Of a DNA stretch of 64,000 nucleotides, positions 320 to 22,815 are shown in pieces; position 1 is the first letter of the stretch; each line of letters opens with the position of its first letter. A program made the translations under genes and the position numbers. The stretch covers positions 62,001 through 126,000 of the forward strand of contig CACDVH010000003.1 of assembly GCA_902556205.1 (NCBI GenBank). The letters are read 5' to 3'. The notes under the pieces are model-generated. The model made no database searches, was not told where the DNA came from, and was given only the letters and a program-made list of their open reading frames with translations. Source of the DNA: an uncultured Gammaproteobacteria bacterium (GTDB taxonomy: Bacteria; Pseudomonadota; Gammaproteobacteria; PS1; Pseudothioglobaceae).

Positions 320-466
320 ATTAATATCTTGTTCTCAAATCAAATTTGGTGGCACTTGCAATCATAAATAATAATTTAAGCCGGAGAAAGGGCAGCCAAT
401 AGTAAATTCCTTACTGTAATTGAAATGGCCTATCACTAAGGAGTTGACTGCAAGTTACCAAAAAAA

Positions 467-874
467 TTAACCGTAATGATTCATTAAATCAGCAATTCGT
501 TTCAAAAAAATTGCATGCTCACATGCTTCTTCAGAAGAATAAACCTCATCAAACATTTCAACTGGTTTACCTCTTATTCCAGAGGCAATTCCAATTTTGT
601 ACTGCTCAAACATTCGTATACAGACGCTTACATACTTTCCTGCCATAGGCGCCCTTCGCATTTTGTCTAAAACAGTTCTAAGTTCATGACTATGTTCAAC
701 TGCAACTCTTCCATTTGAAGGAGCTTTTCCAACTGGACTGTTTCTATGCTCAGCAATAAGACGATGACGAGACTCATCATCAAACAGAAGTGGCATCACA
801 TATGTTTTAGTTATATAATCATCAGTCTCAGTATGTGATAGATTTTCTTTAACACCTTTAGTTTTATCTAGCAT
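467..874 (-). CDS. N,N-dimethylformamidase small (alpha) subunit-like protein
   Basis: This 135-residue soluble protein is the last gene of the minus-strand run that begins with the binding protein at 7795. Its length matches the roughly 130-residue small subunit of N,N-dimethylformamidase. From memory of that family, the C-terminal pattern EEACEHAIFLKRIADL (residues 115-130) and the segment AGKYVSVCIRMFEQYKIG (78-95) resemble the known small subunit. It lies 30 bases after a paralogous gene and two genes after the large subunit, the expected partner in an alpha2-beta2 type enzyme. The small subunit carries no catalytic metal site in known enzymes; a structural role is inferred. No signal peptide or membrane segment is seen. 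The call rests on remembered similarity and context. Confidence 0.66.
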   Translation of the reverse strand: MLDKTKGVKENLSHTETDDYITKTYVMPLLFDDESRHRLIAEHRNSPVGKAPSNGRVAVEHSHELRTVLDKMRRAPMAGKYVSVCIRMFEQYKIGIASGIRGKPVEMFDEVYSSEEACEHAIFLKRIADLMNHYG

Positions 875-904
875 AATTAATCCTCATAGTTTCCATGAAT
901 ACAA

Positions 905-1273
905 TCAGTGGTTTCGACATGGCACTGATTCTCCTCGTTCTTCCTTGAGGCGTAATGCCTCGTTTTGAGCCTCCTCAGGCGTACTGAAGACTTTCTCTTC
1001 AAATAGTATTAAGGGTTTTGCTCTATCAGCATTTAACTGGCCAACACACCATTCTTTACCCTCAATAGTGCAGACTGCCACATACGCCCCTGCAATAGGT
1101 CCATATTGCCTATTATTAAGAGTAAATAAGCATTCAGCTAAATCATTAACTTTATCTTCATCTAGATCACTAATCACAGACTTTTCTAATTCATTCATTG
1201 GCTCAGTACTTGAACCTAATACTGATTTTCCTGTTGGTGGATCCATCATTTCAGTTTGTTCATTTAAAATCAT
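905..1273 (-). CDS. Diverged paralogue of the dimethylformamidase small subunit
   Basis: This 122-residue protein sits between the large-subunit gene (22 bases upstream) and the other small protein (30 bases downstream). Residues 59-111 align with residues 76-130 of the downstream protein: PIAGAYVAVC against PMAGKYVSVC, then KPLILFEEKVFSTPEEA against KPVEMFDEVYSSEEA. The two are therefore paralogues. The N-terminal half (1-50) is acidic and unlike its sibling. It may be a second small subunit, giving a hetero-oligomer, or a regulatory or chaperone-like variant. It also carries extra cysteines (C68, C76, C119). I know of no described enzyme of this type with two small subunits. Paralogy is seen in the sequence; function is inferred from context. 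Confidence 0.6.
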   Translation of the reverse strand: MILNEQTEMMDPPTGKSVLGSSTEPMNELEKSVISDLDEDKVNDLAECLFTLNNRQYGPIAGAYVAVCTIEGKEWCVGQLNADRAKPLILFEEKVFSTPEEAQNEALRLKEERGESVPCRNH

Positions 1274-1295
1274 AGCAAATCACTCCTAATAGTTA

Positions 1296-3674
1296 TTATG
1301 GTAATGGCTCATCTTTCAAGAAGCCTCTTATTGCATTTTCAGTAATTCTCGAAACATTATTGTTGTAATTATTATGAGAGAGACTTCCACACCATGATAA
1401 TGAACCTGGCGCGAATACTGCACCACCCTGATCAGTCTTGTAATAAATCATATCAGCACGCACCATAGGGTTTTCCGTACCACCGCCATGGTATCCACGA
1501 ACTGAAAAATGTATTTCCTCATTAACCTGAAGCATCAAGTTTGTATGACCTTCTGAGTGAGCCAACAAGTATGCATCATGAGGGGTTCCAAACTCTAAAT
1601 CATAACGATCTAGCTCTAGACCAGCCGCACCACCTCCAACTAAACCAAAATCACCAATCTTTTCACCATTACCAACCCCTTCCATAATCCAAGCAGCCTC
1701 AGGTCTCTCACTATCCTTATCTCTAACATAGTAGGAAGAAACATCAAAGCCGTATGCTGTAAAGGTTAGACCACATAATTTACTTGGTATTCTTCCTCTA
1801 GCTCTCCACATGCCTCCAAACTTTCCATCAAAAGCATTGTTATACTCTCCTGGATTCGCTGTCCAAGCCCTTGTTCCAGCTTCACCTTTTCGAACCTCAA
1901 TAATATTTGTGTTATCTGGATGATACTCACTGCACCAGTAGAAACCATTAGCACCCAAATAAATCCATCTTCCGCCATCCTGCTGATATTTTTCATAGGC
2001 CTCAAACATTTTTTCTGAAGTATATTCTGGATGACTACCTGTCAGTACAGTTTGATATTTATTTAATAAACCAACGCCCTCTCTATGCAGGTCTTCATCA
2101 GTATGAATATCAAAATCGAAGTTTTTTTCCTCTAACCAATCTACAAGATGCAAATCACCATTAAGTTGCCATAGCGAGGGAGATAGCCAATGACGATATT
2201 TAGGTCGCATATTTAAAATAGGCCTTAATCTTGAAGAGTAACAAACTCCACTTCCATCAGAATGTAAAGAATATGTTGATAAACCATATTCTCTATGCTC
2301 ATTTAAATACAGATCAGCAGCTGTCATAACTGGAACCTTTCCTGCTAATAATTCTGCAACTACACAGTTTGTGCATAAATTATCATTTGAATATGCGATA
2401 TAAGCGTTAGTTGGCAAAATAAACGCCAACTTCGAAGTCGTTTTTCCTCTTGGAGGACGAACCACAAAAGGAATGTAATCCTCAGTTTCGGGAGAATCTT
2501 CTCCACCAATCCTTAAGCGAGCAGCATAGACACCACTTTTTAAATGGTCTGGTATCTTTAATTCAAAATCAACATCCCAACGCGCATCATCTATATCATC
2601 ATCATGAAAATGAATCGCGCCATATTCTTCAGGTTTATGATGATAGACAATCTCATCTCCTGTCCAGTTAAAACCTGTCATACCGCGAACTGGCATATTG
2701 ACAATAAAACCATCTAATCTTGTAGTTGAGGTATCTACTATAAAAGTTGAAGCAATATTTTTTGTAATATTTGCATGAAAATCCCAAGCACCCACAACAT
2801 CATCTCTTAATGCTGCCTGGCAACCTTGATAGCCCCTAGCTAATGATTCTATTTCGGCTTTACTTAAAGCTCTTCGTGATAATCTTGGGCGATCAATCTT
2901 ACCGTTATAGGTATTGACCTGTTCAGGGAGCTCAATAGGCTCCATCGCTTCTTTAAAATGGCCACCAAAAATATGCCTTCCTGATCTTTCATTTTTTGTA
3001 CTAGCTGCCATTAAGAATGGCGCATCATTAATACCTGGCTTAATACTATTGATTGATTCAACCAGAGCTGTAGTTTCTTCAGATGGATGAAGAATTCCTT
3101 GACCTAAGCCACCGTTTGTTGAAGTAACAACAGGCTCTTGATATAAAGTTACTTTACCTGTTCTAGAGTCATAACTGACTGCAGCTAGATACCAAACCTT
3201 ACGTAATAACTTTTTCTCACTTGAAAGTTTCATGACTTGACCACTACCATCACCTATTTCTACCGAAAGACAGTTATTTTCATCAATAAATAACCCATAG
3301 CCACTCTTTGTTTCCTCAACCCATTTAGTCAGAATACCTTGGCGTTGTTTTTGAGGTGTGCCCAGACCTTCAATTGGGGTAGTGGGAAAGATATAACATT
3401 GCAACGTAAAACTCTCTACATTGAGTCTCTCATCCTGAGGAACAATTATGTATGAGCCTCCATGTATTCTTTGATTTCTACCAGGATAATTTTTATTACA
3501 TTCTGCGTCAATTTCCTCTTCTTTGTATCCTGGACCTTCAGGATTTGTATCTCCATGAATTAAACGAACTATTTGAGTTTCGTAAACTTCATTTTCTTCA
3601 GAATTAATATAAAACTTTATATTATCTCCAGGACAAACAGAGTATTTGTCACTATAACCAGTAATTCTTAACAT
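1296..3674 (-). CDS. N,N-dimethylformamidase large (beta) subunit-like hydrolase
   Basis: The 792-residue product has the length and layout of the large subunit of N,N-dimethylformamidase, which hydrolyses dimethylformamide to dimethylamine and formate. Residues about 1-60 form a beta-rich N-terminal part. Residues about 80-300 look like a concanavalin/laminin-G fold (GDGSGQ, WYLAAVSYDSRTGKVTLY). The rest is the catalytic class-I-amidotransferase-like region. The known enzyme binds a mononuclear iron through two Tyr and one Glu, with a nearby His. Candidates here are Y428 (NAYIAYSN), Y468 (STYSLHSDG), E550 and H548 (TGSHPEY), with spacing close to that remembered for the known enzyme. No signal peptide, so cytoplasmic. 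It is preceded by a flotillin-like gene (40-base gap) and followed by one likely and one possible small subunit. The true substrate could be another formamide or small amide. Confidence 0.8.
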   Translation of the reverse strand: MLRITGYSDKYSVCPGDNIKFYINSEENEVYETQIVRLIHGDTNPEGPGYKEEEIDAECNKNYPGRNQRIHGGSYIIVPQDERLNVESFTLQCYIFPTTPIEGLGTPQKQRQGILTKWVEETKSGYGLFIDENNCLSVEIGDGSGQVMKLSSEKKLLRKVWYLAAVSYDSRTGKVTLYQEPVVTSTNGGLGQGILHPSEETTALVESINSIKPGINDAPFLMAASTKNERSGRHIFGGHFKEAMEPIELPEQVNTYNGKIDRPRLSRRALSKAEIESLARGYQGCQAALRDDVVGAWDFHANITKNIASTFIVDTSTTRLDGFIVNMPVRGMTGFNWTGDEIVYHHKPEEYGAIHFHDDDIDDARWDVDFELKIPDHLKSGVYAARLRIGGEDSPETEDYIPFVVRPPRGKTTSKLAFILPTNAYIAYSNDNLCTNCVVAELLAGKVPVMTAADLYLNEHREYGLSTYSLHSDGSGVCYSSRLRPILNMRPKYRHWLSPSLWQLNGDLHLVDWLEEKNFDFDIHTDEDLHREGVGLLNKYQTVLTGSHPEYTSEKMFEAYEKYQQDGGRWIYLGANGFYWCSEYHPDNTNIIEVRKGEAGTRAWTANPGEYNNAFDGKFGGMWRARGRIPSKLCGLTFTAYGFDVSSYYVRDKDSERPEAAWIMEGVGNGEKIGDFGLVGGGAAGLELDRYDLEFGTPHDAYLLAHSEGHTNLMLQVNEEIHFSVRGYHGGGTENPMVRADMIYYKTDQGGAVFAPGSLSWCGSLSHNNYNNNVSRITENAIRGFLKDEPLP

Positions 3675-3714
3675 AATATTTCCTCAAATTTCATTAATTA
3701 GAAAGTTAAATTAA

Positions 3715-5712
3715 TTAGGATATTTCCCCTTCTATATCGTCATCTTTTTTTTCATCTTTTTTATAATCGCCAAGCAAGTTCTTGATATTGCTAATCTCTT
3801 TTGGAGACATTCCAATTTCGTCAAGAAGGTTATCAATAAATGGAACTTGAGCTCTATAACGCATAGCCGCATTTACTATATTTTCGGGTAAACCCCCTCC
3901 ATCATTAGAAACAGGGCCTACAAAATCACTGTTAGCGCTATTTGAATTGAAACCTGGCATTCCATTCAATTCGTATATTTTTATATCATCAATATTCTCC
4001 ATTGGTTTCACAGCCTCTCGAATAATTGAATCAAGATTTCTAGCCAATTCCATTCTGAGATCACTTTGTCTGCTTTCATCACTTCGAACATTTTCAGCCT
4101 CATTGAGCATTAACTTTCCAGCAGCATCAATCTCATATCGAAGCTTGCTTGCCAATGAAGTATGCTTTTCAGCTTGCTCACGCTCCTGAGCGGCTTCTTT
4201 TTCAGCTCTTGCAAGTGTGGTGATTTGAATTGCTTCACTCTCACCTTCCTTTTCAGCATTAATTAATTGCAGTTTTTTATCACGCTCTGCAACTTCAACT
4301 TCTTGTGCAGAAAGAACCTGCTCCTCTGCAACTACTGCTTGTGCTCTTGCATGCTCTTTATCTTCAACTGCACTTAAAACTTCAACTGTTTTAGCAATAA
4401 CTTCCAATTCACGGTCTTTTTCTTCAATTTCAAGATTTTTTCTCTTTTTAATTTCTGAAGCCTGAGCCTGCTGATCATTTTCTATTCTTGTAACTTCTAT
4501 GATTCGTTGTTGTTCAATCTGAAGTTTTTTCACCTCTTCCTGGGCTTTGATTTGAGCTTGCTCAGCCTCTATGTATTTATCTGATTCAACCTTGAGAACC
4601 TCAGCCTTTTGTCTAGCTCTTTGAGATGCTATTTCTTCTTCTTGTTTAAGTCTCGCAAACTCATTTTCTTTTTTAATTTCTAAAGATCTTATTTCAGCTT
4701 CAAGATTCTTTTCTTTAATATCAATCTCTGTCTGTCTCTCAATCTCATTTCGAAGTTTTTTACGCTCTTCAATTTGAAGAGTCAGTTCATGTTCACGCAA
4801 AGAGCGCTCAACTTCAATAGTATCTTGTTGCTGTATGCGAGTTTTTTCAATGTCTTCTTCAGCCTTAATTCTTGCCTCTTCCGCTAAGCGCTCTTGCCTG
4901 GCAGTTTCGATAGCCATTTCGGTACGCTCTTTGTCTCGCTGTTTGGCGATTTCACGCTCTTGAAGCAATCTAGAAAATTCTCTATCTTGGTCAATTTCTA
5001 GCGCTTTTTGCTCTGCCTCTAAGTTCTTACTTCTAATTCTTATTGATGTATCTTGTTCAATATCATTACGCTTCTTCTTTCCAGCTTCAATTTGCTCTGT
5101 CAACTGTGTCAAACCTTCCGCGTCAAATGCATTTGAGGGATCAAATACTTCTAATCCAGCCTGATCAACACTAGTTAATGAGACAGCTTCTAACTCAAGA
5201 CCAGTCGACCCTAAAGACTCAGCAACAATATCTTTTACTGCTTTAATATATGCGCCACGCTGCTCTTGAATCTCTTCCATTGACATCTGAGCAGCAACAA
5301 TACCAAGAGCATCAACAAAACGACCTTGCACTAAATCTCTCAGGCTTTCAGGCTCCATTGTTCTTTTGCCAAGGGTTCCAGCTGCAATTGATACAGCCTC
5401 TTTATTAGGAGTAACACGAACATAAAATTCAGCGACTATCTCAACACGCATGCGATTTTTTGTTATGAAGGATTTATCTCCACCTCGTTTAACCTCAATT
5501 CGCAAGGTTCTCATTCCAACAGAGGTAATATTATGAATAATTGGTAATACAAAGGCTCCTCCACTTATAACAACTTTTTCTCCTCGAAGCCCTGTTCTTA
5601 CAAATGAAACCTCTTTTGATGATCTTCGATACAACCAATGCAGCAAATAGACAAAAATTGCTATTGCTAATGCTGTCAAGATAATAGTTGCAATGATGTC
5701 TGCACCAGTCAT
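3715..5712 (-). CDS. Flotillin/YqiK-like SPFH protein with tandem coiled-coil repeats
   Basis: 665 residues. Residues 4-27 are one N-terminal membrane segment, followed by basic RRSSK. Residues about 30-190 are an SPFH/band-7 domain (VSFVRTGLRGEKVVISGGAFVLP is split by the motif GGAF typical of YqiK/flotillins). Residues about 200-560 are a very charged coiled coil rich in E, K, R and Q, and the C-terminus is acidic. Flotillins scaffold membrane microdomains and usually pair with NfeD proteins. The protein is longer than most flotillins because the coiled coil holds a tandem duplication (residues 215-320 and 321-426). The gene lies 27 bases after the rhodopsin and 40 before the amidase large subunit, suggesting co-transcription. 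A role in organising the rhodopsin or transporter in the membrane is only a guess. Confidence 0.85.
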   Translation of the reverse strand: MTGADIIATIILTALAIAIFVYLLHWLYRRSSKEVSFVRTGLRGEKVVISGGAFVLPIIHNITSVGMRTLRIEVKRGGDKSFITKNRMRVEIVAEFYVRVTPNKEAVSIAAGTLGKRTMEPESLRDLVQGRFVDALGIVAAQMSMEEIQEQRGAYIKAVKDIVAESLGSTGLELEAVSLTSVDQAGLEVFDPSNAFDAEGLTQLTEQIEAGKKKRNDIEQDTSIRIRSKNLEAEQKALEIDQDREFSRLLQEREIAKQRDKERTEMAIETARQERLAEEARIKAEEDIEKTRIQQQDTIEVERSLREHELTLQIEERKKLRNEIERQTEIDIKEKNLEAEIRSLEIKKENEFARLKQEEEIASQRARQKAEVLKVESDKYIEAEQAQIKAQEEVKKLQIEQQRIIEVTRIENDQQAQASEIKKRKNLEIEEKDRELEVIAKTVEVLSAVEDKEHARAQAVVAEEQVLSAQEVEVAERDKKLQLINAEKEGESEAIQITTLARAEKEAAQEREQAEKHTSLASKLRYEIDAAGKLMLNEAENVRSDESRQSDLRMELARNLDSIIREAVKPMENIDDIKIYELNGMPGFNSNSANSDFVGPVSNDGGGLPENIVNAAMRYRAQVPFIDNLLDEIGMSPKEISNIKNLLGDYKKDEKKDDDIEGEIS
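4435..5070 (-). repeat. Tandem 106-residue duplication inside the flotillin-like gene
   Basis: Residues 215-320 and 321-426 of the flotillin-like protein align end to end with no large gaps. Landmarks are RNDIEQDTSIRIRSKNLEAE against RNEIERQTEIDIKEKNLEAE, DREFSRLLQEREIAKQR against NEFARLKQEEEIASQR, and QQDTIEV against QQRIIEV, always 106 residues apart. A weaker third start (KNLEIEEKDRELEV) follows from about residue 425. The period is a sign of internal duplication of a coiled-coil block rather than simple low complexity. Confidence 0.8.
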
Positions 5713-5739
5713 GATTTTTTCTCCTTTAAAAATTTATTT

Positions 5740-6453
5740 CTATTTATTAATTTCATCTAGTCTTGCTTGGGTGTCATTCATAGCAGCTCTATATACAACA
5801 AACCCGAAAATAATTTTGTTTAAAAAGTCAGTTAAGTTATAAATGATATTCAAGCTATTAACATCTACACCGCCCCCAAGATTATTAATAAAATAGCCAA
5901 GAGGATAAATAGCCCAACCAATAGTTAGAATTAGCCTTAATCCATTAAATGCCATATGGGTAGCCTCGTTGCCACTCTCAATATTGCAGCGACTTGCCTC
6001 CCCCATGTATAACTCACCAAGGATATAAAGCCAACCCACTATTCCAATAATAAATCCTAATGTTGCGCTCATATAGCCAGCAGTACCCAAAAACTCACCA
6101 ATCACCATTACTAAAGTTCCAATTAAAAGTCTCCAGAATAGTGCAGATGAGACTTTAGTTACTGCGGTCAAAATGACATAAAAAAGAACTACCTGCATAG
6201 AATGAGTCAGTATCCAATCTAAATACCGAAGCACAATTGGTGCTTTACCCGTATCAACCCACATTCCTTGAACATAGTAATAGAATATTGCTGAAATTAG
6301 CATTGTGACCCCTAAAAGGGTCATGGTTGTATGCCATCTTCCATCCACCCTGTTTCTTTCCAATAAAAAGAAGATTGATGCACCAATCAATGCCATAGAG
6401 AGAAGCCAAAATGTTGCACCTACAATGTCAGTTGGTAATAAAGTGGTGTTCAT
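5740..6453 (-). CDS. Proteorhodopsin-family rhodopsin lacking the usual proton-donor residue
   Basis: 237 residues, seven membrane segments. The retinal-binding lysine is K213 in NLTDFLNKIIFG, with D209 just before it. Helix C reads RYLDWILTHSMQVVLF: R76, counterion D79 and T83 are kept, and Q87 occupies the spectral-tuning position (Gln is typical of blue-absorbing forms). The position of the cytoplasmic proton donor (Glu108 in proteorhodopsin) is L90, and the histidine that partners the counterion (His75) is F57. The usual TVPL is THSM. Residues in the retinal pocket (W80, W180, Y183, P184) are present, so chromophore binding is likely. Function as a fast proton pump is doubtful; a slow pump, sensor or other light-driven role is possible. 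No retinal or carotenoid synthesis genes are in the window. It lies between a binding protein and a flotillin-like gene. Confidence 0.93.
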   Translation of the reverse strand: MNTTLLPTDIVGATFWLLSMALIGASIFFLLERNRVDGRWHTTMTLLGVTMLISAIFYYYVQGMWVDTGKAPIVLRYLDWILTHSMQVVLFYVILTAVTKVSSALFWRLLIGTLVMVIGEFLGTAGYMSATLGFIIGIVGWLYILGELYMGEASRCNIESGNEATHMAFNGLRLILTIGWAIYPLGYFINNLGGGVDVNSLNIIYNLTDFLNKIIFGFVVYRAAMNDTQARLDEINK

Positions 6454-6481
6454 ATAAATCCTTAGTTATAAAATTCTTTAT

Positions 6482-6510
6482 TAAATAATTTACTTCTATA
6501 TTTTTGCCAA
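6482..6510 (-). promoter_or_regulatory. Possible rhodopsin promoter
   Basis: On the minus strand TTGGCA (6510-6505), a 17-base spacer and TATTTA (6487-6482) lie 29 bases before the rhodopsin start. The match is fair, so the rhodopsin and the genes after it may have their own promoter besides read-through from the binding-protein gene. Confidence 0.35.
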
Positions 6511-6547
6511 TAATGAGGTTGAAAAATAATCATTAAAGGCTTTTTAA

Positions 6548-6604
6548 AGTTTGGATAACCAAAAGAAAGAGTTATTAAAAACCTTAAATCCAGTCATCCA
6601 AACT
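6548..6604 (-). terminator. Long-loop inverted repeat after the binding-protein gene
   Basis: A perfect 9-base inverted repeat (AGTTTGGAT / ATCCAAACT) with a 39-base loop lies just after the stop codon of the binding-protein gene. It is followed on the minus strand by TTTAAAAAG rather than a clean T-run. It could be a weak attenuator or an mRNA-stabilising structure that lets the binding protein be made in excess, as is common in ABC operons. The long loop makes it weak evidence. Confidence 0.3.
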
Positions 6605-6622
6605 CAATGTAACATCCCTATA

Positions 6623-7795
6623 TTATGCGTCCGGATCGTACTCCTCCGGGTTGGCCGGCCTTAAGAAGAAATTATCGAGATAATCACTTCCACCCCAAAT
6701 ATCAATTCCAGGGTTATACCAGTCAGTCGAATTACGATCACAATCAGCGCCCATCATAGCCTCAACATCAGAATAGGTTATTTTCTGAGGTGGTACTAAA
6801 ATAGACTGAATCTTAGGACCTTGTCCTTGCATAGTTCTCATCATGATGTTCCATCCAAGCTCTATATCATCGCCTGGAGGCCATGTTTGAATTGCAGCAC
6901 TAATATATTCTGGGTTATTACGCCAGTAACATAGTGCACCAAGCTCACCACCAATAGATAAAGGGACCATTTCACGACCTGATTGTTGGAGTGCAGCTAG
7001 AACACCTGTTTCACCAGAAGACTGAACTGCCATTCCATCCAGTTGTCCAGGATGTGTTGCAAGCCATTTTTGTGTTTCAGCTTGACCCACTTGTGAAGTC
7101 CACATGTGTGCAATTTGACCTGTTACTTTAATACCAGGGTATCTAGATAAACCATCCAATACTCCAGCATTTTGTGAATCGGAAGCTGAGTATCCAGGGA
7201 TACCCTCAACTACAAGAATATTTCCTTCACCGCCGACCTCTTCAGCCATCCAAGTTCCAACATCAAATCCTGCTTGATGGTAGTTAACTGATGAATTAAC
7301 TGAAAGTGGTGATGTTGTATATCCAGTAAATGAGAAGACTGGTACACCTCTATCAAAGGCATACTTAATAGCCTGATTCAAAGCAGTTGGGTTTGAACAA
7401 CAAATAATAATAGCATCCACACCCTGATCAACTAGTTGTCTAATTTGTTGGATCTGTAATGCATCTTTAAGATTAGATTGAGTGACAATTATGTCATTCA
7501 GTAATCCAAGTTCCTGCCATTTAGGTTTAATTTCATTCATTAAACGATTCATAGCACCTTTACGCCATGTATTTCCAGCATATGTACTAGCATAGCCAAC
7601 AGTCCATGGTGGTGAACGATCACTTTTCCAGTCTCTAAATGCACTTTCATCCAGAGGCTGCATAGGATCCATCAAATCCATGTTGTAAACTGAATCAGTA
7701 ATGTCAGATGGTATTTCATCTAGACCCGCAAATGCCATACTGGAAAATCCCAATGACAATATGCAAGCCATGATCATTTTTATTAACTTATTCAT
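6623..7795 (-). CDS. Periplasmic sugar-type ABC transporter substrate-binding protein
   Basis: 390 residues with a clear signal peptide (KLIKMIMACILSLGFSSMAFA, cleavage after about residue 23). The body is a type-I periplasmic binding protein of the ribose/galactose class: WTVGYASTYAGNTWRKGAM at the start of the first lobe, then DQGVDAIIICCSNPTALNQA, RGVPVFSFTGY and GEGNILVVEGIPG, all standard landmarks. A good ribosome site (GGAG) precedes the ATG. It heads a minus-strand run with the rhodopsin, flotillin-like protein and amidase genes, and is transcribed from a promoter with GTATG-type sites. It is the likely ligand-binding part of one of the two ABC systems in the locus. The true ligand cannot be read from sequence; the amidase next to it suggests a small amide or amine rather than a sugar. 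Confidence 0.85.
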   Translation of the reverse strand: MNKLIKMIMACILSLGFSSMAFAGLDEIPSDITDSVYNMDLMDPMQPLDESAFRDWKSDRSPPWTVGYASTYAGNTWRKGAMNRLMNEIKPKWQELGLLNDIIVTQSNLKDALQIQQIRQLVDQGVDAIIICCSNPTALNQAIKYAFDRGVPVFSFTGYTTSPLSVNSSVNYHQAGFDVGTWMAEEVGGEGNILVVEGIPGYSASDSQNAGVLDGLSRYPGIKVTGQIAHMWTSQVGQAETQKWLATHPGQLDGMAVQSSGETGVLAALQQSGREMVPLSIGGELGALCYWRNNPEYISAAIQTWPPGDDIELGWNIMMRTMQGQGPKIQSILVPPQKITYSDVEAMMGADCDRNSTDWYNPGIDIWGGSDYLDNFFLRPANPEEYDPDA

Positions 7796-7910
7796 ATTAA
7801 TTACTCTCCTTTTTTTATTTATAGATAAGCTTGATTGCCAAATCTACTTACCCTAGAAAATGCCCTGTTTTATTGACTATTCAGCAAATATAAACATAAT
7901 TACATAGTCT

Positions 7911-8009: not shown

Positions 8010-8020
8010 AGACCTATTAC
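7993..8020 (+). promoter_or_regulatory. Promoter of the response-regulator gene
   Basis: TTGACT (7993-7998), a 16-base spacer and TATTAC (8015-8020). An AAAGTATGC site (8001-8009) fills the spacer and another (7982-7990) lies just upstream of the -35. The layout TTGACT-AT-AAAGTATG is nearly the same as at the promoter near 14857. Confidence 0.55.
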
Positions 8021-8096
8021 TAATTTTGTCTGATAAATACTGTACAATTTGGTTCTATATTGACTAACAATGCATTATTTGGAGCTGTTAACTAAC

Positions 8097-8780
8097 ATGG
8101 AAATTACAAACGAAAAAAGACCAATTAAATATAAAATTGTTATTGCTGATGATCACGCCCTGGTTCGAGGAGGCTTAGAATTAGTTGTTAAGATGGCTGT
8201 TCCAAGTGCCGAAATATTCCAAGCAAATAATTTTGATGAAACAATTAATGTCCTTCAATCGAATTTCTCAATTGATCTAGTATTGCTTGATTTAATGATG
8301 CCGGGAATGTGGCATGATAGTATTAAAAACATTACTCAACAATTTCCAGACGTTCCTATTGTTATTGTTTCAGTTAAAGAAGACTTTGATTCAATTCATA
8401 ATTCGATTTCATTGGGTGCCTCTGGCTTCATTCCCAAGACCTCTGCACCTGAGGTAACTATTAGTGCCATTCAATTGGTTCTTTCTGGTGGCGTCTATAT
8501 ACCGCCGCATGTTCTAAAACCTCAAACGAAACCTATACCAAACAATCTACAACCTAATAATACGGATACTTTCAATACTTTATCAAAGAGACAGAAGCAA
8601 GTTCTTGACTTAATTAGTCTTGGGCGATCAAATCAAGCTATAGCTGATGAATTAGACCTGACCATTCCTACTATAAAAATGCATGTTTCGGCAATTCTAA
8701 AAAAGTTAAATGTCAAAAATAGAACAGAAGCGGTTTCAATTTATACAAACTTAGAAAAAGTGTCAGATTTAATTTCTTAA
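8097..8780 (+). CDS. NarL/FixJ-type two-component response regulator
   Basis: The frame is open from an ATG at 8070, but no ribosome site precedes it. The ATG at 8097 has GGAG upstream and starts a few residues before the receiver domain, so I prefer it. Numbering from the 8070 ATG, the receiver covers about 20-140 with acidic pair D27-D28, phosphorylated D74 (VLLDLMMPG) and K123 (GFIPKTS). The LuxR-type helix-turn-helix covers about 170-228 (LSKRQKQVLDLISLGRSNQA, then TIKMHVSAILKKL). It is the likely partner of the hybrid kinase at 11556-13616 and the likely binder of the GTATG sites on both sides of the locus. It is followed after 26 bases by a TorT-like sensor. Whether it activates or represses is unknown. 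Confidence 0.9.
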   Translation: MEITNEKRPIKYKIVIADDHALVRGGLELVVKMAVPSAEIFQANNFDETINVLQSNFSIDLVLLDLMMPGMWHDSIKNITQQFPDVPIVIVSVKEDFDSIHNSISLGASGFIPKTSAPEVTISAIQLVLSGGVYIPPHVLKPQTKPIPNNLQPNNTDTFNTLSKRQKQVLDLISLGRSNQAIADELDLTIPTIKMHVSAILKKLNVKNRTEAVSIYTNLEKVSDLIS

Positions 8781-8806: not shown

Positions 8807-9997
8807 ATGTTTCTTAAACGAATACAAAATAGGCTCAAAATTGCTATTCTAAGTTTTCTCTTTATTCTTAATGCACCTAATTTTGTATACGCTTATGATG
8901 GAAGTTATTGGACGCAAAACGTAAATGTATTTAATTTGTCTTGTACCGATGGTGATGTAGCTTGCTGGATTGATGAAAGAAACGCATTAGATACATTGCC
9001 ATTAATAATGTATAAACCTCTTAAAGCATCTGAAGTTAAGAAAAAACATCATATATGCGTATCTTTTCCCCACCTTAAAGATTCTTATTGGGTTGGAGTA
9101 GCCTTCGGAATTATTTCTGAAGGAAGGCGACTTGAGCAAAAAATAACCTTATTCGAGGCTGGTGGATATACAAATCTAGCTACTCAGTTAAACCAAGTTG
9201 ATGACTGTCTAAATAATGAGGGTGATGCTTTAATTATTGGTCCTATCTCGAGCAATGGAAACGCCAAACAAATTGAACTAATTAGAGAAAAAGGCATTCC
9301 AGTTGTTATTATTATTACAGGTATCAATACTGAAGTAGATGCCAACTCTCTTCAAAGTTTTGTCAATATGGGTTACACCTCTTGTAAATGGGTCGCTGAC
9401 CAGGAGAAACTAAACAAAGAAAAAACAAATATAGTATGGTTTCCAGGGCCTCCTGGGGCTGGCTGGTCTATCGCCTCTCATGAAGGATGTCTAAGTGCAC
9501 TTGAAGGCACAAACATTAGAATATTAGAAACTAATTGGGGTGATACCGGAAAAGCCATCCAATTAAAATTGGTTGAAGAAACGCTTTTAAATCATGCCTC
9601 GGGACCTGAACCCGATTTCAAATATATTGTAGGAACTGGAACCACAATTGAGGCCGCTGTAGGCGCACTCAGAGCAAGAAAGCTCGGTAAAAAAATCAAC
9701 CTAGTATCCACATATTACACACCTGGTATTGACATGTTTATTAAACGTGGTCTAATTTCAATGGCGCCATCAGACCAAATGATTTCTCAAGCAATAATTG
9801 CTGTTGATCAAGCAGTAAGACTTTTAGAGGGAAAGCAAATGGCAACATTAGGAAGACCAGAATTTAATAATACCGGTCGAATAACTGAACACGTTCAACA
9901 ACAAATTTTAATTGTAACTCCAGACACATATGACAAATTTGATTCATCAACAACACTTGCACCAAAGGGCTGGTCTCCAAAATTTTCAGTAGACTGA
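8807..9997 (+). CDS. TorT-like periplasmic ligand-sensing/binding protein
   Basis: 396 residues. Residues 1-29 are a signal peptide (basic start, then ILSFLFILNAPNFVYA). The mature part is a type-I periplasmic binding fold that resembles TorT, the periplasmic protein that binds trimethylamine N-oxide and works with the sensor kinase TorS: SFPHLKDSYWVGVAFG, LFEAGGYTNLATQLNQVDDC and GDALIIGPISSNG are the family landmarks. The gene lies between the response regulator and an RbsA-like ATPase, and a hybrid kinase is 1.6 kb downstream on the other strand. So it may be the ligand sensor of the two-component system, the binding protein of the ABC system, or both. A TMAO-like or methylated-amine ligand is inferred, not shown. 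Confidence 0.78.
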   Translation: MFLKRIQNRLKIAILSFLFILNAPNFVYAYDGSYWTQNVNVFNLSCTDGDVACWIDERNALDTLPLIMYKPLKASEVKKKHHICVSFPHLKDSYWVGVAFGIISEGRRLEQKITLFEAGGYTNLATQLNQVDDCLNNEGDALIIGPISSNGNAKQIELIREKGIPVVIIITGINTEVDANSLQSFVNMGYTSCKWVADQEKLNKEKTNIVWFPGPPGAGWSIASHEGCLSALEGTNIRILETNWGDTGKAIQLKLVEETLLNHASGPEPDFKYIVGTGTTIEAAVGALRARKLGKKINLVSTYYTPGIDMFIKRGLISMAPSDQMISQAIIAVDQAVRLLEGKQMATLGRPEFNNTGRITEHVQQQILIVTPDTYDKFDSSTTLAPKGWSPKFSVD

Positions 9998-10011: not shown

Positions 10012-11559
10012 ATGTCACAAACCAATATTCCTTTATTAAAGCTTCAGAAAATTTCTAAAAATTTTTTTGGATCGGCTGTCCTTAAAAATATCGATTTTGA
10101 TCTTTATCCTGGAGAAGTTCATGCAATTTTTGGACAGAATGGCGCTGGTAAATCTACATTAATTCAAATTATAACTGGCGACATAAAACCTTCAAGTGGA
10201 AAAATTAACATCAATAATGAAGAGTTAAAGATTCATTCTGTTCATAAAGCCAAAGAACTAGGCATAAGTGCTGTCTTTCAAGAATTTTCATTAGTTCCCC
10301 AACTTACGGTTGAAGAAAATTTATTCTTAGGATCAAACACCTCAAAAGGTTTTTTTCTTAATAAAAAAAAGCTACATCAAGTAGCTTGTGATACTTTGGA
10401 TCAGCTTGAATTCTCTATCAAGCCTGAAGAAAAGATAGTTAATTTATCCCATGCAGAAAAGAGAATGGTTGAAATTGCGAAGGCGTTTCATACTAAACCA
10501 GCGATCATGGTTCTAGATGAGCCAACATCATCACTAGCTGACAATGAAACAAATCAACTTTTTTCAATGATTGAAATTCTTAAAAAAGAAGGCATTGGAA
10601 TTATCTATATTACGCATCGAATGAATGAGATTTATAGGATTGCTAATCGAATTACAATTCTTCAAGATGGCCATGTAGTCAATACAGATTTTGTAGAAAA
10701 TATTAATGAACAAAAATTAGTAGAATTAGCAACTGGTAGGAATATTACAAATTTTTTTCCTGAAATAAAAAAACAACCTGGAAGAAAACTTCTTGACGTA
10801 AAAAACTTACAAATTAACAATAGTTTTATTGATGATGTTTCGATTCATGTTAAAGCAGGAGAAGTTATAGGAATTGCAGGACTAGCTGGCTCGGGTAAAT
10901 CTGCGATTGGGCGAGCCTGCTTTGGAATTGATAAAATTGCAGCAGGTCAAATTACTTATCTAGATGATTTGATATATGACAGCTCAAAACAAATTAATGA
11001 TCTTAATCCACGATCAATGCTTGATAGAGGAATGCTATATTTGCCCTCTGACAGGAGGGCAGAAGGCCTTGTAATGGGACAAAATATTAGAGAAAATATT
11101 TCTTTACCCTCATTAGATCTGCCTAAATTTTCTAGTGGCTTTATTGTTAATAGAAAAAAAGAAAAAGATATTGTCGAAAAAATTGGTGAACGTCTCAACT
11201 TTAATAGTCAAGGCATTGAAAACAAAATAGAACAGCTTTCTGGTGGAACTCAACAAAAAGTTATGCTTGCCAAAAGTTTTGCTCGCGATGTCCAACTTTT
11301 TATTCTAGACGAACCAACTGTTGGAGTTGATATTGGAACTCGTGTCGCTATTTACGAAATAATAAAAGAGTTTTGTGAGTCTGGAGGAGCAGTCATACTT
11401 ATCTCTTCAGACTTATCAGAAATAGTAAATTTATCTCATAGAATTTATATTATTAGTGAAAAGAACAAATGCATTGAATTTGTTGCAGAAGATTGTAATG
11501 AACATCTCATACAATACTATTTTCTTAACTCAGCAATTGAGCCAGCTCACGCCACTTAA
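10012..11559 (+). CDS. RbsA/MglA-type ABC transporter ATPase (two nucleotide-binding domains)
   Basis: 515 residues, the usual length for this class. The first domain has Walker A GQNGAGKST and Walker B VLDEPTSSL, with a signature that is weak (NLSHAEKRMVEIAKAF). The second has GLAGSGKSA, signature LSGGTQQKVMLAKSF and LFILDEPTVGVD. It is unusual that the second Walker A is intact (GKS), since in RbsA-type proteins it is often degenerate. It starts 14 bases after the TorT-like gene, so the three plus-strand genes (regulator, sensor, ATPase) form an operon. Likely partner permease: the gene at 13715-14728. The 3' end overlaps the convergent kinase gene by four bases. Cytoplasmic, membrane-attached. 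Confidence 0.9.
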   Translation: MSQTNIPLLKLQKISKNFFGSAVLKNIDFDLYPGEVHAIFGQNGAGKSTLIQIITGDIKPSSGKININNEELKIHSVHKAKELGISAVFQEFSLVPQLTVEENLFLGSNTSKGFFLNKKKLHQVACDTLDQLEFSIKPEEKIVNLSHAEKRMVEIAKAFHTKPAIMVLDEPTSSLADNETNQLFSMIEILKKEGIGIIYITHRMNEIYRIANRITILQDGHVVNTDFVENINEQKLVELATGRNITNFFPEIKKQPGRKLLDVKNLQINNSFIDDVSIHVKAGEVIGIAGLAGSGKSAIGRACFGIDKIAAGQITYLDDLIYDSSKQINDLNPRSMLDRGMLYLPSDRRAEGLVMGQNIRENISLPSLDLPKFSSGFIVNRKKEKDIVEKIGERLNFNSQGIENKIEQLSGGTQQKVMLAKSFARDVQLFILDEPTVGVDIGTRVAIYEIIKEFCESGGAVILISSDLSEIVNLSHRIYIISEKNKCIEFVAEDCNEHLIQYYFLNSAIEPAHAT

Positions 11560-13616
11560 GCCTGAATTAAGTGCGATAGCATAGCCCTAAACTTTGCTGG
11601 TTGAATTGGCTTCAATAAAACTGGAAAACCCTGATCGATTATCCCTTGAACATGGCTTCGCTCTACATCGCCTGTCATAATGACACATGGTATAGAGGTC
11701 TGTAATTTTTCTTGAATTAAATAGGTAATATCAATACCAGATGCATCACCAGGTAATCGGTTATCCGCTAAGATAATATCTGGATTTTTATATGGATCCT
11801 CTTTAATTAAATTCATAACTTCATCTTTATTTCTGGCAGTTTTAACATTACAACCCCATGACTCTAAGAGCTGCTTAGTTGCTTTCAAAACATCAATATC
11901 ATCTTCAATTAAAAGAATATTTATCCCAGATAAGTTCATAATATTCATAAAAATTTCATCTTGGTTTGTATCAGCTTTATTTTCAGCAAGATCAACACGA
12001 ACAGAGAAGCAAGATCCCCTTCCAAGGCTTGATTTACTATCAATCTTATGATCTAGACTATCAGATAAACGTTTTGCAAGTGCCAACCCAAGACCCAGCC
12101 CTTTACCTCTATCACGCTCCTTATTTTCAACTTGATAAAAGTCCTCATAAATTAATGACATTTGATCATCAGAAATTCCACAACCAGTATCCCAAACCTC
12201 AATTGAAACTTCAGAGCCCTTCCTTCTACATCCAATCAAAACCGAACCTTTGTCAGTATAGCGAATAGCATTAGACATAAAATTTCCCAAAATACGCTCT
12301 AATAAGGCCGGATCACTTTCAACATATAGACTCGATGGAACTATTCTAAAATCTAATTCTTTGTCTTTGGCAAGAGGAAGAAATGATTGAAAGATACTAA
12401 TCAAAATGTTATTGACTGAAAAAATTTCATGCCTTGGCTTGATTGCACCTACCTCTAATTCTGAGACATCAAGAAGAGCATTTAACAACCTTGCAGTTGA
12501 GATTGAGACAGAGTTTATATCTTCAATAATCCGCAATATCTCTTTATCCTTAACTTTCGATTGTAAAGCAGCAATATACATTTGCATTGCATTTAAAGGT
12601 TGACGCAAGTCATGGCTCGCTGATGCTAAAAAAACTGACTTCGCTTTGTTAGCTCTTTCAGCATCAGATTTAGCGTTCTGTAGACCCTCTCCCTGCTCCC
12701 ATAAATCTTTTTTGAGCCTATTAAAACTTCGCCCCATTCGACCTAATTCGTCTTCTCTTGAGAGGATGTTTTGTTCATCTTCAATTTCCTCTACCTTATG
12801 CAAAGGAGTATATCTATTGATTGAGTCTGTAAGTAATTGCAATGGTTTTGAAATATTCATTCTGACGATTACCAATACCATAGAAACAACAAATAGCAAC
12901 GCTATTAGAGAAGTTATAACGATATAACTTATAGCAATTCGCTCTACATATGTTATTTGGGCTTTAGAGGCATTGATGATTTCTTCTAACTCGCTACTTA
13001 CTCTGTTCGCTTGTAGCATTAAATTATTTTCAGTAGCAGAAATTTCATCAAGATCAGTTATATCAATTGTGAGTATTTCAAGATTTATTTCGGCAAATAA
13101 ATTATCAACTACTAGCTGATAGTACATTTGATTAACTTTTCTTAACTCATAAAGCTCAGAAAGTAACTTTTCTTTATGAACTTTAATTATATCTTTGTCA
13201 CCTATTCCTTCATTACTGACTCTCTTAACAAAAGACTCAGTATCTGCAATAGATTGCTTCAGATTTTGATTTGATAAAATAAATTCAGTTTGAATATCTT
13301 CATTTTCCAATAATTGATTAAATTTATCATAAAAGGTTGCTTCTTCCGAACCTTGGTTAACTATCTGGTTAACAGTAATAAATAACTCCTTTACACTTAA
13401 ACTTTGCTTATAAACATTCTCATCGATGGTATTGACTGATTCAATCAAGGGAATAGTAATCGATGACATTTGCTTCGTCTCATTTCCGACAGTATATATT
13501 TGGGAAAAAGCAACAAGCATAACAGCCATAAAGCCCAAAAACTCAATTACCAAAAGTGATAATATTTTTTGATTTAAAGACAATCTGTTAAATAAGTTTT
13601 GCTTGATAAATTCCAT
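11556..13616 (-). CDS. TorS-like hybrid sensor histidine kinase with receiver domain
   Basis: 686 residues. Membrane segments at about 17-38 and 229-251 frame a periplasmic helical region of about 190 residues, as in TorS-type sensors that bind a periplasmic partner protein. Then come a HAMP linker, a dimerisation/phospho-acceptor domain with H335 (SHDLRQPLNAMQ), an ATPase domain (N-box N449, DTGCGI, GKGLGLGLAL) and a C-terminal receiver (E571-D572-D573, phospho-acceptor D618 in ILADNRLPG, K669). TorS proper adds an HPt domain, which is absent here, so phosphate probably reaches the NarL-type regulator at 8097-8780 by another path or directly from H335. It follows the permease gene by 98 bases on the same strand. 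Ligand input through the TorT-like protein is inferred from family knowledge and proximity. Confidence 0.88.
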   Translation of the reverse strand: MEFIKQNLFNRLSLNQKILSLLVIEFLGFMAVMLVAFSQIYTVGNETKQMSSITIPLIESVNTIDENVYKQSLSVKELFITVNQIVNQGSEEATFYDKFNQLLENEDIQTEFILSNQNLKQSIADTESFVKRVSNEGIGDKDIIKVHKEKLLSELYELRKVNQMYYQLVVDNLFAEINLEILTIDITDLDEISATENNLMLQANRVSSELEEIINASKAQITYVERIAISYIVITSLIALLFVVSMVLVIVRMNISKPLQLLTDSINRYTPLHKVEEIEDEQNILSREDELGRMGRSFNRLKKDLWEQGEGLQNAKSDAERANKAKSVFLASASHDLRQPLNAMQMYIAALQSKVKDKEILRIIEDINSVSISTARLLNALLDVSELEVGAIKPRHEIFSVNNILISIFQSFLPLAKDKELDFRIVPSSLYVESDPALLERILGNFMSNAIRYTDKGSVLIGCRRKGSEVSIEVWDTGCGISDDQMSLIYEDFYQVENKERDRGKGLGLGLALAKRLSDSLDHKIDSKSSLGRGSCFSVRVDLAENKADTNQDEIFMNIMNLSGINILLIEDDIDVLKATKQLLESWGCNVKTARNKDEVMNLIKEDPYKNPDIILADNRLPGDASGIDITYLIQEKLQTSIPCVIMTGDVERSHVQGIIDQGFPVLLKPIQPAKFRAMLSHLIQA

Positions 13617-13714: not shown

Positions 13715-14728
13715 TTATTTTTTTGCCTTTGAGAGCATCTGTTGACGAAAATATTCTGCACCAATAGCAACAATTAACAATGCTCCAATTACAACCATTT
13801 GAAGATATGACCCAACCCTCATAAGATTCATACCATTTTGTATTAAGATAATAAAAAAAGCACCCAGGACTACATTCTGAACACGGCCAACCCCTCCAAG
13901 CAAACTCACCCCACCAATTGCACAAGCTGCAATTGAGAGTAACGGGTAATTAGCACCAATATTTGGCTCACCAGTTTCAAGTCGAGCAGTAATAAGTAAA
14001 GCAGCAATACCGGTAATTAAGGCAGATAAGACATAAGCACCAACAATATAAACTCTCGTATTTATTCCTGATAGTTCAGCAGCTCTTAAATTTCCACCAA
14101 TAGCATAAAAATATCTTCCCACTTTAGTGAAATTAATAAAAATAAAAACGAAAGAAATACATAAAAGTGTTATCCAAATAGTTATAGATACGCCTAAAAA
14201 TGTTCCATAACCAAAAATATTAGTAAACGATTCAGGAGCACCATATATCGGTATACCGCCAGTAATAGTCAGAGCTAAGCCAAAAATAATAGAAGACATG
14301 CCGAGTGTCATTATAAAAGGAGGGACACGAAAAAACGCAACACCAATACCATTAACTAAGCCTATACATGCAGCAACAAAAAGGCCGGTCAAACATCCAA
14401 TGGCAATAGCCTCCCAGCCACTACCATAACCAGACCATAAGGCAACCATCGTCATCGATGCTACTACAGATGTCATAGCTAGTATAACTCCCACAGAAAA
14501 ATCCAAACCTGCAGTTAGCATTACAATCATTTGAGCCATAGCAACTAAAATAAGATCAGTTGAATGTCTCGCAATAGCAGCTAAGTTAGTAGGAGTTAGA
14601 AAGTTATTACTAGCAAATGTAAAAGTAATTAAAGCAATACCTAAAAACCATGGAAGCACTCCTGCCCTAACAAAAAGAATAGAAAAGTATTCTTTGAGAT
14701 TTTTACCCTTTAGTAGTTCATGACTCAT
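13715..14728 (-). CDS. Sugar-type ABC transporter permease
   Basis: 337 residues with about ten membrane segments. It shows the standard RbsC/AraH-family landmarks: LVAMAQMIVMLTAGLDFSVG (the TAGLDFSVG loop), FFRVPPFIMTLGMSSIIFG, YAIGGNLRAAELSGI (coupling loop to the ATPase) and GGVSLLGGVGRVQNVVLGAF. It probably works as a homodimer with the ATPase at 10012-11559. The gene diverges from the second ATPase gene; the 184 bases between them hold a perfect regulatory dyad. A good -10 (TATAAT at 14839-14834) with a poor -35 suggests an activator-dependent promoter. The kinase gene follows on the same strand, so transporter and sensor may be co-expressed. Confidence 0.9.
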   Translation of the reverse strand: MSHELLKGKNLKEYFSILFVRAGVLPWFLGIALITFTFASNNFLTPTNLAAIARHSTDLILVAMAQMIVMLTAGLDFSVGVILAMTSVVASMTMVALWSGYGSGWEAIAIGCLTGLFVAACIGLVNGIGVAFFRVPPFIMTLGMSSIIFGLALTITGGIPIYGAPESFTNIFGYGTFLGVSITIWITLLCISFVFIFINFTKVGRYFYAIGGNLRAAELSGINTRVYIVGAYVLSALITGIAALLITARLETGEPNIGANYPLLSIAACAIGGVSLLGGVGRVQNVVLGAFFIILIQNGMNLMRVGSYLQMVVIGALLIVAIGAEYFRQQMLSKAKK

Positions 14729-14885: not shown

Positions 14886-14912
14886 GTACCTATACTTTTG
14901 GATGTTTTTTGC

Positions 14913-20817: not shown

Positions 20818-20859
20818 ATGTCATCAAAAAACTATTTAAGAAGGAAGAAAAATGACTGA
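20818..20859 (+). CDS. Possible 13-codon leader peptide before the symporter gene
   Basis: An ATG preceded by AAGGAG at a 7-base distance opens a 13-codon frame (MSSKNYLRRKKND) whose stop overlaps the symporter start (ATGACTGA). The placement suggests translational coupling. The peptide is very basic and has no membrane segment, so it may be only a ribosome-loading device or chance. Confidence 0.3.
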   Translation: MSSKNYLRRKKND

Positions 20860-22783: not shown

Positions 22784-22815
22784 ACTAAAAAAAGCCTAAT
22801 CATTGCAAATAAACT

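What the first reader, a model, noticed from the sequence alone, without database searches (positions are those of the whole stretch)
467..7795. Rhodopsin and flotillin inside a run with a dimethylformamidase-type enzyme
Six same-strand genes run with short gaps (binding protein, rhodopsin, flotillin-like, amidase large subunit, two small-subunit-like proteins). The only larger gap (169 bases) lies after the binding protein. I know of no described operon that joins a microbial rhodopsin to an amide hydrolase and a transporter binding protein. It suggests that light energy or a light signal, membrane scaffolding, uptake and hydrolysis of a small amide belong to one programme.
Basis: partly seen in the sequence, partly recalled or inferred. 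Interest (0 to 1): 0.82.

Follow-up and report, generated by a model that had tools for sequence, protein, structure and literature searches.

The report
Rhodopsin-like protein in an importer cluster
In a marine bacterium, a rhodopsin-like protein that probably no longer uses light sits in a published gene cluster with a membrane-scaffold protein, nutrient importers and an amide-cutting enzyme; relatives suggest that its lasting partner is the importer.

Summary
In detail: six same-strand genes at the stated coordinates. The rhodopsin-flotillin cluster is already in print (FArhodopsin or FAR cluster, PMC10308929), and that paper names the dimethylformamidase. The window rhodopsin is close to PsFAR (PDB 9r21; 9 differences in 237 residues, my count). 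Linkage to the amidase is real in one clade: 8 of 8 uncut clusters.

My searches shift the emphasis. The lasting partners of the rhodopsin-fold protein are an ABC importer (binding protein, ATPase, two permeases), flotillin and a sodium/solute symporter. This set recurs in alpha-, beta- and gammaproteobacteria. The binding protein stays 57-66% identical to the window's while the rhodopsin falls to 27-41% in a lysine-less lineage. There, 28 of 28 rows lack retinal lysine and counterion aspartate and carry Arg in the pocket. The window protein keeps lysine and aspartate but has His84 and Glu120 in the pocket; the depositors of 9r23 changed exactly these two.

Best reading: a light-independent membrane subunit of a flotillin-organised uptake and hydrolysis machine for a small amide or ring compound. 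Substrate and mechanism are inferred.

The parts
467..874 (-). DMFase small-subunit homologue ('small2', 135 aa)
   Evidence: profile match to 6lvb_B E 1e-4; conserved in the 8 clusters aligned
905..1273 (-). second small-subunit-like protein ('small1', 122 aa)
   Evidence: no significant PDB sequence match; paralogue of small2 by hhalign 91%, E 1e-6; low-confidence model (pLDDT 63) ranks 6lvb_B and 6lvv_B second and third in PDB, E 0.17 and 0.24
1296..3674 (-). DMFase-type amidohydrolase large subunit (792 aa) with counterparts of the catalytic residues of the Paracoccus enzyme
   Evidence: Fe ligands and His present in 9 of 9 cluster copies, residue roles from PMC7686228
3715..5712 (-). flotillin (665 aa)
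   Evidence: Band_7 and Flot domains
5740..6453 (-). flotillin-associated rhodopsin (237 aa), D79 T83 L90 motif, K213 kept, H84 and E120 in the pocket
   Evidence: 9r21_A E 1e-149; residues; PDB titles
6454..6622 (-). 169-base gap between binding-protein and rhodopsin genes; 149-215 bases in five genomes, sequence poorly conserved
6623..7795 (-). periplasmic binding protein SBP1 (390 aa), on average the most conserved member of the module across distant lineages
   Evidence: Peripla_BP_4; 57-66% identical to distant clusters
8070..8780 (+). LuxR-type response regulator
8807..9997 (+). second binding protein, TorT family
   Evidence: NF008185 279 bits against cut-off 200, but TIGR02955 210.6 under its cut-off 310
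10012..11559 (+). ABC importer ATPase, first system
11556..13616 (-). hybrid sensor histidine kinase
13715..14728 (-). ABC permease-like protein, first system
   Evidence: by sequence similarity to perm2 and perm3 and position; conserved in the five genomes of the genus; no family scan run
14898..17093 (+). ABC ATPase of the module (ABC2)
   Evidence: homologue beside SBP1 or the permeases in distant clusters; annotated so
17140..19329 (+). ABC permease of the module (perm2)
   Evidence: homologue annotated ABC transporter permease
19358..20788 (+). ABC permease of the module (perm3); in relatives the gene directly before the rhodopsin gene
   Evidence: 16 of 16 distant loci; homologue annotated ABC transporter permease
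20852..22783 (+). sodium/solute symporter (SSS); right end of the cluster
   Evidence: SSS family models, all below cut-off; homologues
346..398 (.). 53 bases beyond the left end of the cluster shared with one relative, G015 (90.6%); possible edge or terminator

Best explanation
This is the Pseudothioglobus form of the flotillin-associated rhodopsin (FAR) cluster. I read it as a machine for uptake and hydrolysis of a small organic solute. SBP1, ABC2 and the permeases perm2 and perm3 import a solute whose identity is largely constant across lineages, and the SSS symporter imports the same or a related one. The rhodopsin-fold protein works in the membrane beside the permeases without light: it has lost retinal function and acts as an assembly, gating or ligand-sensing subunit. 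Flotillin gathers these parts in one membrane patch. A hydrolase fitted to the lineage then opens the imported compound; here it is an iron DMFase with two small subunits. The most likely substrate class is a small, perhaps ring-shaped or N-substituted amide. Shown: gene content, conservation, residue losses, co-occurrence. Inferred: physical complex, lack of light use in vivo, substrate, division of labour.
For: Perm3 directly precedes the rhodopsin-fold gene in 16 of 16 distant loci (these loci were found by their flotillin). A search by the rhodopsin itself in 347 genomes of the order of L033's genome finds 14 with the FAR-type protein: 14 of 14 beside a flotillin match (in G488 only a 125-aa piece), 13 beside perm3, the 14th on a cut contig. 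The reverse search finds SBP1 at 59% or more in 14 of the 347, 13 of them the same; the other (G803) has a match that runs to 2 bases from its contig end. SBP1 at 51% or less occurs in 4 genomes, none with a rhodopsin match. In plasmids, the 6 records with SBP1 at 60% or more are the same 6 that hold the rhodopsin-fold protein (two of the six are plasmids of nearly equal length and may be one). SBP1 stays 57-66% identical in distant clusters while FAR drops to 27%. Pocket: 28 of 28 lysine-less rows lack D79 and carry R120; 29 of 29 proteorhodopsin-type rows have D79, V84, G120, K213; rows include near-duplicates. Predicted lysine-less fold: pLDDT 89.9, best PDB match PsFAR, TM 0.94. DMFase Fe ligands and His in 9 of 9 copies. 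Lactam enzymes in the same module: CapA and CapB over cut-off in G619; PxpA over two subfamily cut-offs (not the equivalogs) in G354; in G432 a protein over the 5-oxoprolinase/urea amidolyase domain cut-off (TIGR00724) but under that of PxpC.
Against: The window protein keeps D79, D209 and K213, so retinal binding in vivo is not excluded. Five FAR rows (L030, L146, G280, G452, G374) keep D79 and K213 with V84 and A120, and 3 of the 4 of these genomes tested carry an RPE65-type oxygenase, so part of the family may still use light. In Pseudothioglobus SBP1 is separated from ABC2, perm2 and perm3 by other genes. No gene identifies the solute, and the hydrolases differ between lineages. gmaS, expected if dimethylamine is the product, is over cut-off in 7 of 9 genomes but not in the window's own held genome. 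No expression or interaction data of my own.
Confidence: 0.45

Rival explanations
1. The FAR protein binds retinal in vivo and gives a light signal or proton motive force that drives or controls uptake of the amide.
For: Lysine, aspartate and the T of the pump motif are kept in the window protein. The genome also has an ordinary proteorhodopsin. Apparently open-pocket relatives exist, 3 of 4 tested with RPE65-type oxygenases.
Against: His84 and Glu120 lie in the pocket, and the depositors of 9r23 changed exactly these two residues. No proton-donor Glu (L90). The lysine-less sister clade keeps the same operon. PMC10308929 cites that a DTT-type protein expressed in E. coli bound no retinal.
Confidence: 0.17
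2. The FAR protein is a helper of the ordinary proton-pumping proteorhodopsin in a flotillin patch, as the authors of PMC10308929 propose; importer and amidase genes are passengers.
For: An ordinary rhodopsin is also found in 4 of the 7 Pseudothioglobus and HIMB59-like FAR genomes searched (G000, G015, G354, G432), plus a match in two pieces in G023; G010 and G028 show none. The paper reports it always so in its single-cell genomes.
Against: 10 of 11 lysine-less genomes searched have no second rhodopsin match, yet keep the same operon. It does not explain the tie to one binding protein.
Confidence: 0.12
3. A mobile island that moves between genomes and collects transport and catabolic genes; its members share transfer, not function.
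For: FAR found in 5 of 29 held genomes of the genus, and the flanks that I compared differ. Similar operons lie on plasmids. Accessory enzymes differ between lineages.
Against: The same seven genes stay together in distant clusters (SSS is missing only in L057, whose contig is cut) and SBP1 is constant while other genes diverge; every FAR-type gene found by its own sequence lies beside a flotillin match (15 of 15: 14, 1).
Confidence: 0.13

Closest known systems
Flotillin-associated rhodopsin (FAR) cluster, PMC10308929, and PsFAR structures 9r21 and 9r23
   Same: Rhodopsin 9 differences in 237 residues from 9r21 as I count the printed alignment; DTL motif, flotillin neighbour, DMFase, symporter, LuxR and hybrid kinase as described for this cluster.
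   Different: The paper gives the DMFase one clause and reads the cluster as membrane microdomain and dim-light adaptation. It notes an inner membrane translocator, a symporter and other transporters, but in the parts that I read it does not treat one importer as the constant partner and names no lysine-less relatives from cultured bacteria.
Paracoccus N,N-dimethylformamidase (6lvb; PMC7686228)
   Same: Match over residues 3-792; Y399, Y440, E521, H519, N547 and E657 all have counterparts (the last two residues by hand count); a small-subunit homologue.
   Different: Two different small-subunit-like genes instead of one; activity and substrate untested.
Rhizobium tropici locus on pRtrCIAT899a, the plasmid that carries the teu genes
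   Same: Binding protein 50.5% identical to SBP1, with ATPase and two permeases nearby; [quoted passage not shown]
   Different: No rhodopsin or flotillin gene annotated in the 19 kb shown (the gene table is incomplete). That this locus is teu is a lead, not shown.
Proteorhodopsin
   Same: Fold and lysine; 45-49% identity between window FAR and the proteorhodopsins of the genus.
   Different: Separate clade (100/98), pocket and proton donor changed.

Membership tests
FArhodopsin | belongs to a clade apart from proteorhodopsins | tested here: met
   34-row side of a branch at 100/98 in a 50-row tree
FArhodopsin | flotillin gene next door on the same strand | tested here: met
   27-base gap
FArhodopsin | DTL motif in Pseudothioglobus, helix G lysine kept | tested here: met
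   D79, T83, L90, K213
FArhodopsin | ordinary proteorhodopsin elsewhere in the genome | tested here: met
   G000:C14
FArhodopsin | cluster absent from close relatives | tested here: met
   FAR found in 5 of 29 held genomes of the genus; several of the 29 are incomplete, and G016 has a cut DMFase of this type
Light-driven proton pump (proteorhodopsin) | carboxylic proton donor at the E108 position | tested here: not met
   L90
Light-driven proton pump (proteorhodopsin) | open retinal pocket | tested here: inconclusive
   H84 and E120 where 29 of 29 proteorhodopsin-type rows have V and G; binding not measured here
N,N-dimethylformamidase | 2-Tyr-1-Glu iron site plus essential His, Asn, Glu | tested here: met
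   Y428, Y468, E550, H548 in 9 of 9 copies; N576 and E687 by hand count, invariant in 5
N,N-dimethylformamidase | small subunit | tested here: met
   small2 to 6lvb_B E 1e-4
N,N-dimethylformamidase | hydrolysis of DMF | not testable with these tools
   no assay
Sugar-type (RbsA-like) ABC importer with Peripla_BP_4 binding protein | binding protein, ATPase and permeases together | tested here: met
   ligand unknown

The most novel reading that the evidence does not exclude
A microbial rhodopsin has been turned into a light-independent subunit of a nutrient importer. In one widespread lineage it lost lysine and counterion, and its retinal pocket became a charged site (Arg120 there; Glu120 with His84 in the window's form) that may bind the imported solute or set the gate of the permease within a flotillin patch.
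Probability: 0.3. Interest if true: 0.82.

Novelty: new member of a known kind. Interest (0 to 1): 0.52.

Why it matters
The function of FArhodopsins is open in the one paper on them that I found. The tie to one binding protein gives a direct test: find the ligand of SBP1 and ask whether the rhodopsin-fold protein changes its uptake. The lysine-less forms occur in named strains (Hoeflea sp. IMCC20628, Pararhizobium gei, Mesorhizobium denitrificans), so the question need not depend on uncultured plankton. If the reading holds, it is a case of an opsin recruited as a transporter part.

Tried and rejected
Retinal supply as a test: PF15461 over cut-off in 4 of 22 genomes, PF03055 in 4 of 22. Neither is found in any of 5 Pseudothioglobus genomes, of which at least G000 and G015 have an ordinary proteorhodopsin, so absence proves little. 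Among 11 lysine-less genomes 8 have neither at cut-off.

Dimethylamine use as support for DMF as substrate: gmaS (TIGR03105) is over cut-off in 7 of 9 genomes, including G007 and G008 in which no FAR was found, and not in G000 or G354. Not specific, not used as support.

Promoter and terminator scan of 300-8200: 24 promoter-like sites against 26.8 expected, 6 terminator-like against 4.2. Uninformative on transcript ends. No repeats found at the cluster edges (200-600 and 22700-22900).

Small1 fold: model too weak (pLDDT 63) and no match at E 0.001 or better; kept only as a hint.

Apparent exceptions examined: G016 has the DMFase (93%, residues 144-792) and both small subunits without FAR, but the contig ends 2 bases beyond the match. 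G803 has SBP1 without FAR; its match ends 2 bases before the contig end. L029 is cut within the flotillin. L050 holds only 57 residues of FAR at the contig start. G488 has FAR with only a 125-aa piece of flotillin, other genes behind it, and no SBP1 match; its contig is 4,090 bases long.

Limits of the searches: the 80 loci were found by flotillin, so the flotillin neighbour is built in there; one search read 21 of the 80. The cut-off (E 1e-105) misses lysine-less clusters such as that of its own centre, G090.

Searches for print: 'flotillin-associated rhodopsin', 'farhodopsin', dimethylformamidase with rhodopsin, flotillin with rhodopsin, retinal and proteorhodopsin from 2023, rhodopsin with lysine-less, flotillin with rhodopsin and substrate-binding protein, PsFAR/PsPR and two phrases. 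Besides PMC10308929, PMC10308909, PMC6336850, three receptor papers and ten unrelated listings of 112 appeared and were not opened. No paper for 9r21-9r23 was found; most subscription journals and preprints are not held. (teu genes; caprolactamase) were used as listings, apart from the passages of PMC3557214.
Full report
What is there. The six genes are real and exactly placed, with gaps of 169, 27, 40, 22 and 30 bases. They are one side of a larger cluster, 467-22783. The other side holds a LuxR-type regulator, a TorT-type binding protein, genes of two ribose-type ABC systems, a hybrid kinase and a sodium/solute symporter. The window is G000:C3:62001-126000 of a 1.65 Mb draft genome. I take it as Pseudothioglobus: the nearest rhodopsins come from 'Candidatus Thioglobus' and SUP05 records, and motif and structure match PsFAR.

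It is known. The rhodopsin matches PDB 9r21 at E 1e-149, titled 'flotillin-associated rhodopsin PsFAR'. PMC10308929 describes the cluster in Pelagibacterales, HIMB59 and Pseudothioglobus, with a dimethylformamidase, a translocator, a symporter and, in Pseudothioglobus, LuxR and a hybrid kinase (I read parts 1-5 of 8, that is the text and the list of supplementary files, not the remaining references or the supplementary tables). [quoted passage not shown] I take these to be DMFase and the two small genes. It reports co-transcription of rhodopsin and flotillin in Pelagibacterales, and no transcript across the amidase junction in the parts I read.

The island within the genus. Of 83 held genomes of the family, 12 have a rhodopsin match at E 1e-60 or better; 5 of these (all among the 29 of the genus) are FAR-type at 82-100% identity. 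The four relatives keep the order of the six genes, and three keep the whole cluster; for G010 the part seen reaches LuxR and part of ABC2 in its public record L025. Flanking stretches compared between genomes share nothing beyond one 53-base piece near the left edge; only the left side was compared for G010, and one side of G023 and of G028 was short (866 and 160 bases). DMFase at 89-100% identity is in the same 5 genomes plus G016 (93%), where the contig ends 2 bases past the match. G000 also has a second DMFase-like gene at 41%.

Relatives outside the genus. A scan of genome contigs with the flotillin alignment gave 80 loci. A FAR match lies directly before the flotillin in 20 of them, and one more shows a fragment at the contig edge (the frames of the 20 are, which read 21 chosen loci). 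Four are the Pseudothioglobus records. In the other 16, perm3 lies directly before the rhodopsin-fold gene in 16 of 16. A search of 385 genomes of the class of G090 with the flotillin found 5 matches at E 1e-105 or better, and all 5 are FAR clusters; this cut-off misses lysine-less clusters. In 347 genomes of the order of G086, 26 match the rhodopsin alignment at E 1e-15: 14 FAR-type (two of them, G086 and G087, gave rows to the query), 11 proteorhodopsin-type and one other. All 14 FAR-type genes are beside a flotillin match (G488 a 125-aa piece), 13 beside perm3, and the 14th (G488) is on a cut contig; none of the other 12 shows either neighbour in the 2-4 kb fetched. In 300 genomes of the order of G088, 7 match, and only G088 itself, the source of a query row, is FAR-type. 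The reverse search with SBP1 found 18 of 347 genomes: 14 at 59% or more, of which 13 are FAR genomes and the other (G803) is cut by its contig end; and 4 at 51% or less, none with a rhodopsin match. FAR genome G488 had no SBP1 match. In plasmids the six records with SBP1 at 60% or more are the six with the rhodopsin-fold gene. The two of these whose gene tables I read list bacteriorhodopsin, flotillin, ABC permease, ABC ATPase, binding protein, lactonase AttM and iron-containing alcohol dehydrogenase.

Conservation. Against the window proteins, distant clusters show SBP1 at 57-66%, ABC2 48-60%, perm3 48-61%, FAR 27-59% and flotillin 38-63% over the best segment; the closer G619 shows 74, 65, 65, 80 and 65%. 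The binding protein is the most constant part, which argues for a largely constant ligand.

State of the retinal pocket. I aligned 70 rows, near-duplicates included. All 29 proteorhodopsin-type rows have D79, V84, G120 and K213 (window numbering). All 28 lysine-less rows have neither D79 nor K213 and have R120. Of 13 lysine-bearing FAR rows, the five Pseudothioglobus rows and G619 have H84 and E120; two HIMB59-like rows (named so from their DNI motif, and 1.4 Mb size) have F84 and G120; five Kiloniellaceae-like rows have V84 and A120, an apparently open pocket. The depositors' double mutant 9r23 is H84V/E120G, the change back towards the proteorhodopsin residues; why they made it I infer, since no paper was found. 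In a tree of 50 of these 70 rows (20 near-duplicates dropped) the 34 FAR-type rows form one side of a branch at 100/98 and the 22 lysine-less rows one at 100/100; the 12 lysine-bearing FAR rows hold together only at 94/75. The root is only a drawing aid. The model of one lysine-less protein is a seven-helix fold with PsFAR as best match.

The enzyme. The large subunit matches the Paracoccus DMFase over residues 3-792. PMC7686228 (abstract and passages read) gives Y399, Y440 and E521 as iron ligands and finds H519A, N547A and E657A inactive. Counterparts Y428, Y468, E550 and H548 are present in 9 of 9 cluster copies; N576 and E687, counted by hand, are invariant in the five genus copies. DMFase with both small subunits lies in the cluster in all 8 uncut clusters of one clade (5 Pseudothioglobus, G619, G354, G432), plus two cut ones (L029, G016). 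It was not found in the stretches read around 3 Kiloniellaceae-like and 14 lysine-less clusters or around G374. Those stretches are 11-34 kb long, so a more distant gene would be missed; 5 of the 11 lysine-less genomes searched have a DMFA2_C protein elsewhere.

Substrate. G619 carries the core of the module on one strand: SBP1, ABC2, two hydantoinase-type genes, perm2, perm3, FAR, flotillin, SSS, DMFase, small1, small2. The two inserted genes pass the NCBIfam cut-offs for caprolactamase subunits CapA and CapB. G354 carries a PxpA-type gene (over two subfamily cut-offs) and a biotin carboxylase-type gene, like these directly before perm2; G432 carries what looks like the same pair (not scanned) and a CT_A_B protein over the 5-oxoprolinase/urea amidolyase domain cut-off but under that of PxpC. 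In the lysine-less operons, alpha/beta hydrolases were seen, and Pararhizobium gei has AttM lactonase over cut-off and an iron alcohol dehydrogenase for which 4-hydroxybutyrate dehydrogenase is one of several below-cut-off models. Ring-opening of lactams and lactones is thus a common thread, but it is an inference from gene families.

Judgement. The finding is a correct reading of a known cluster. Its light hypothesis is weak for this protein, and in the lysine-less sister clade covalent retinal binding at the usual site is excluded by sequence. The part that I did not find in print, within the searches named, is that the rhodopsin-fold protein belongs with one ABC importer across three classes, named strains included; PMC10308929 had already seen lysine-less freshwater forms with Q, T, L or R at the lysine site and some shared cluster genes.

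Noticed in passing
L207:3239-7105 (G000:C10): A second DMFase-like enzyme (41% to the window's) in the same genome lies after ABC genes; the gene before it, 514 aa, matches the small subunit (37.5%), perhaps a permease fused to a small subunit.
   Followed up: partly
L030, L146, L127, L129/L130, L131: Kiloniellaceae-like FAR proteins keep D79 and K213 with V84 and A120; 3 of the 4 such genomes tested carry RPE65-type oxygenases. They may be the light-using members of the family.
   Followed up: partly
L174/L175 (G619:C118): The importer-FAR-flotillin-symporter-DMFase module on one strand in a 3.7 Mb genome, with caprolactamase-type CapA and CapB genes inside.
   Followed up: yes
L208 (G010:C57:1-6000): The start of this contig repeats DMFase end, small1, small2 and the two next genes in inverted order relative to L020; probably an assembly or amplification artefact.
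   Followed up: no
L133:2461-10170: R. tropici plasmid locus with an SBP1 relative lies near an N-acyl homoserine lactonase-family gene and an alpha/beta hydrolase, reminiscent of the lysine-less FAR operons.
   Followed up: no
window 29-319: End of a gene of 144 aa (full in L017:15885-16319) that looks NfeD-like by eye; it lies beyond the cluster edge. Not tested against a family library.
   Followed up: no
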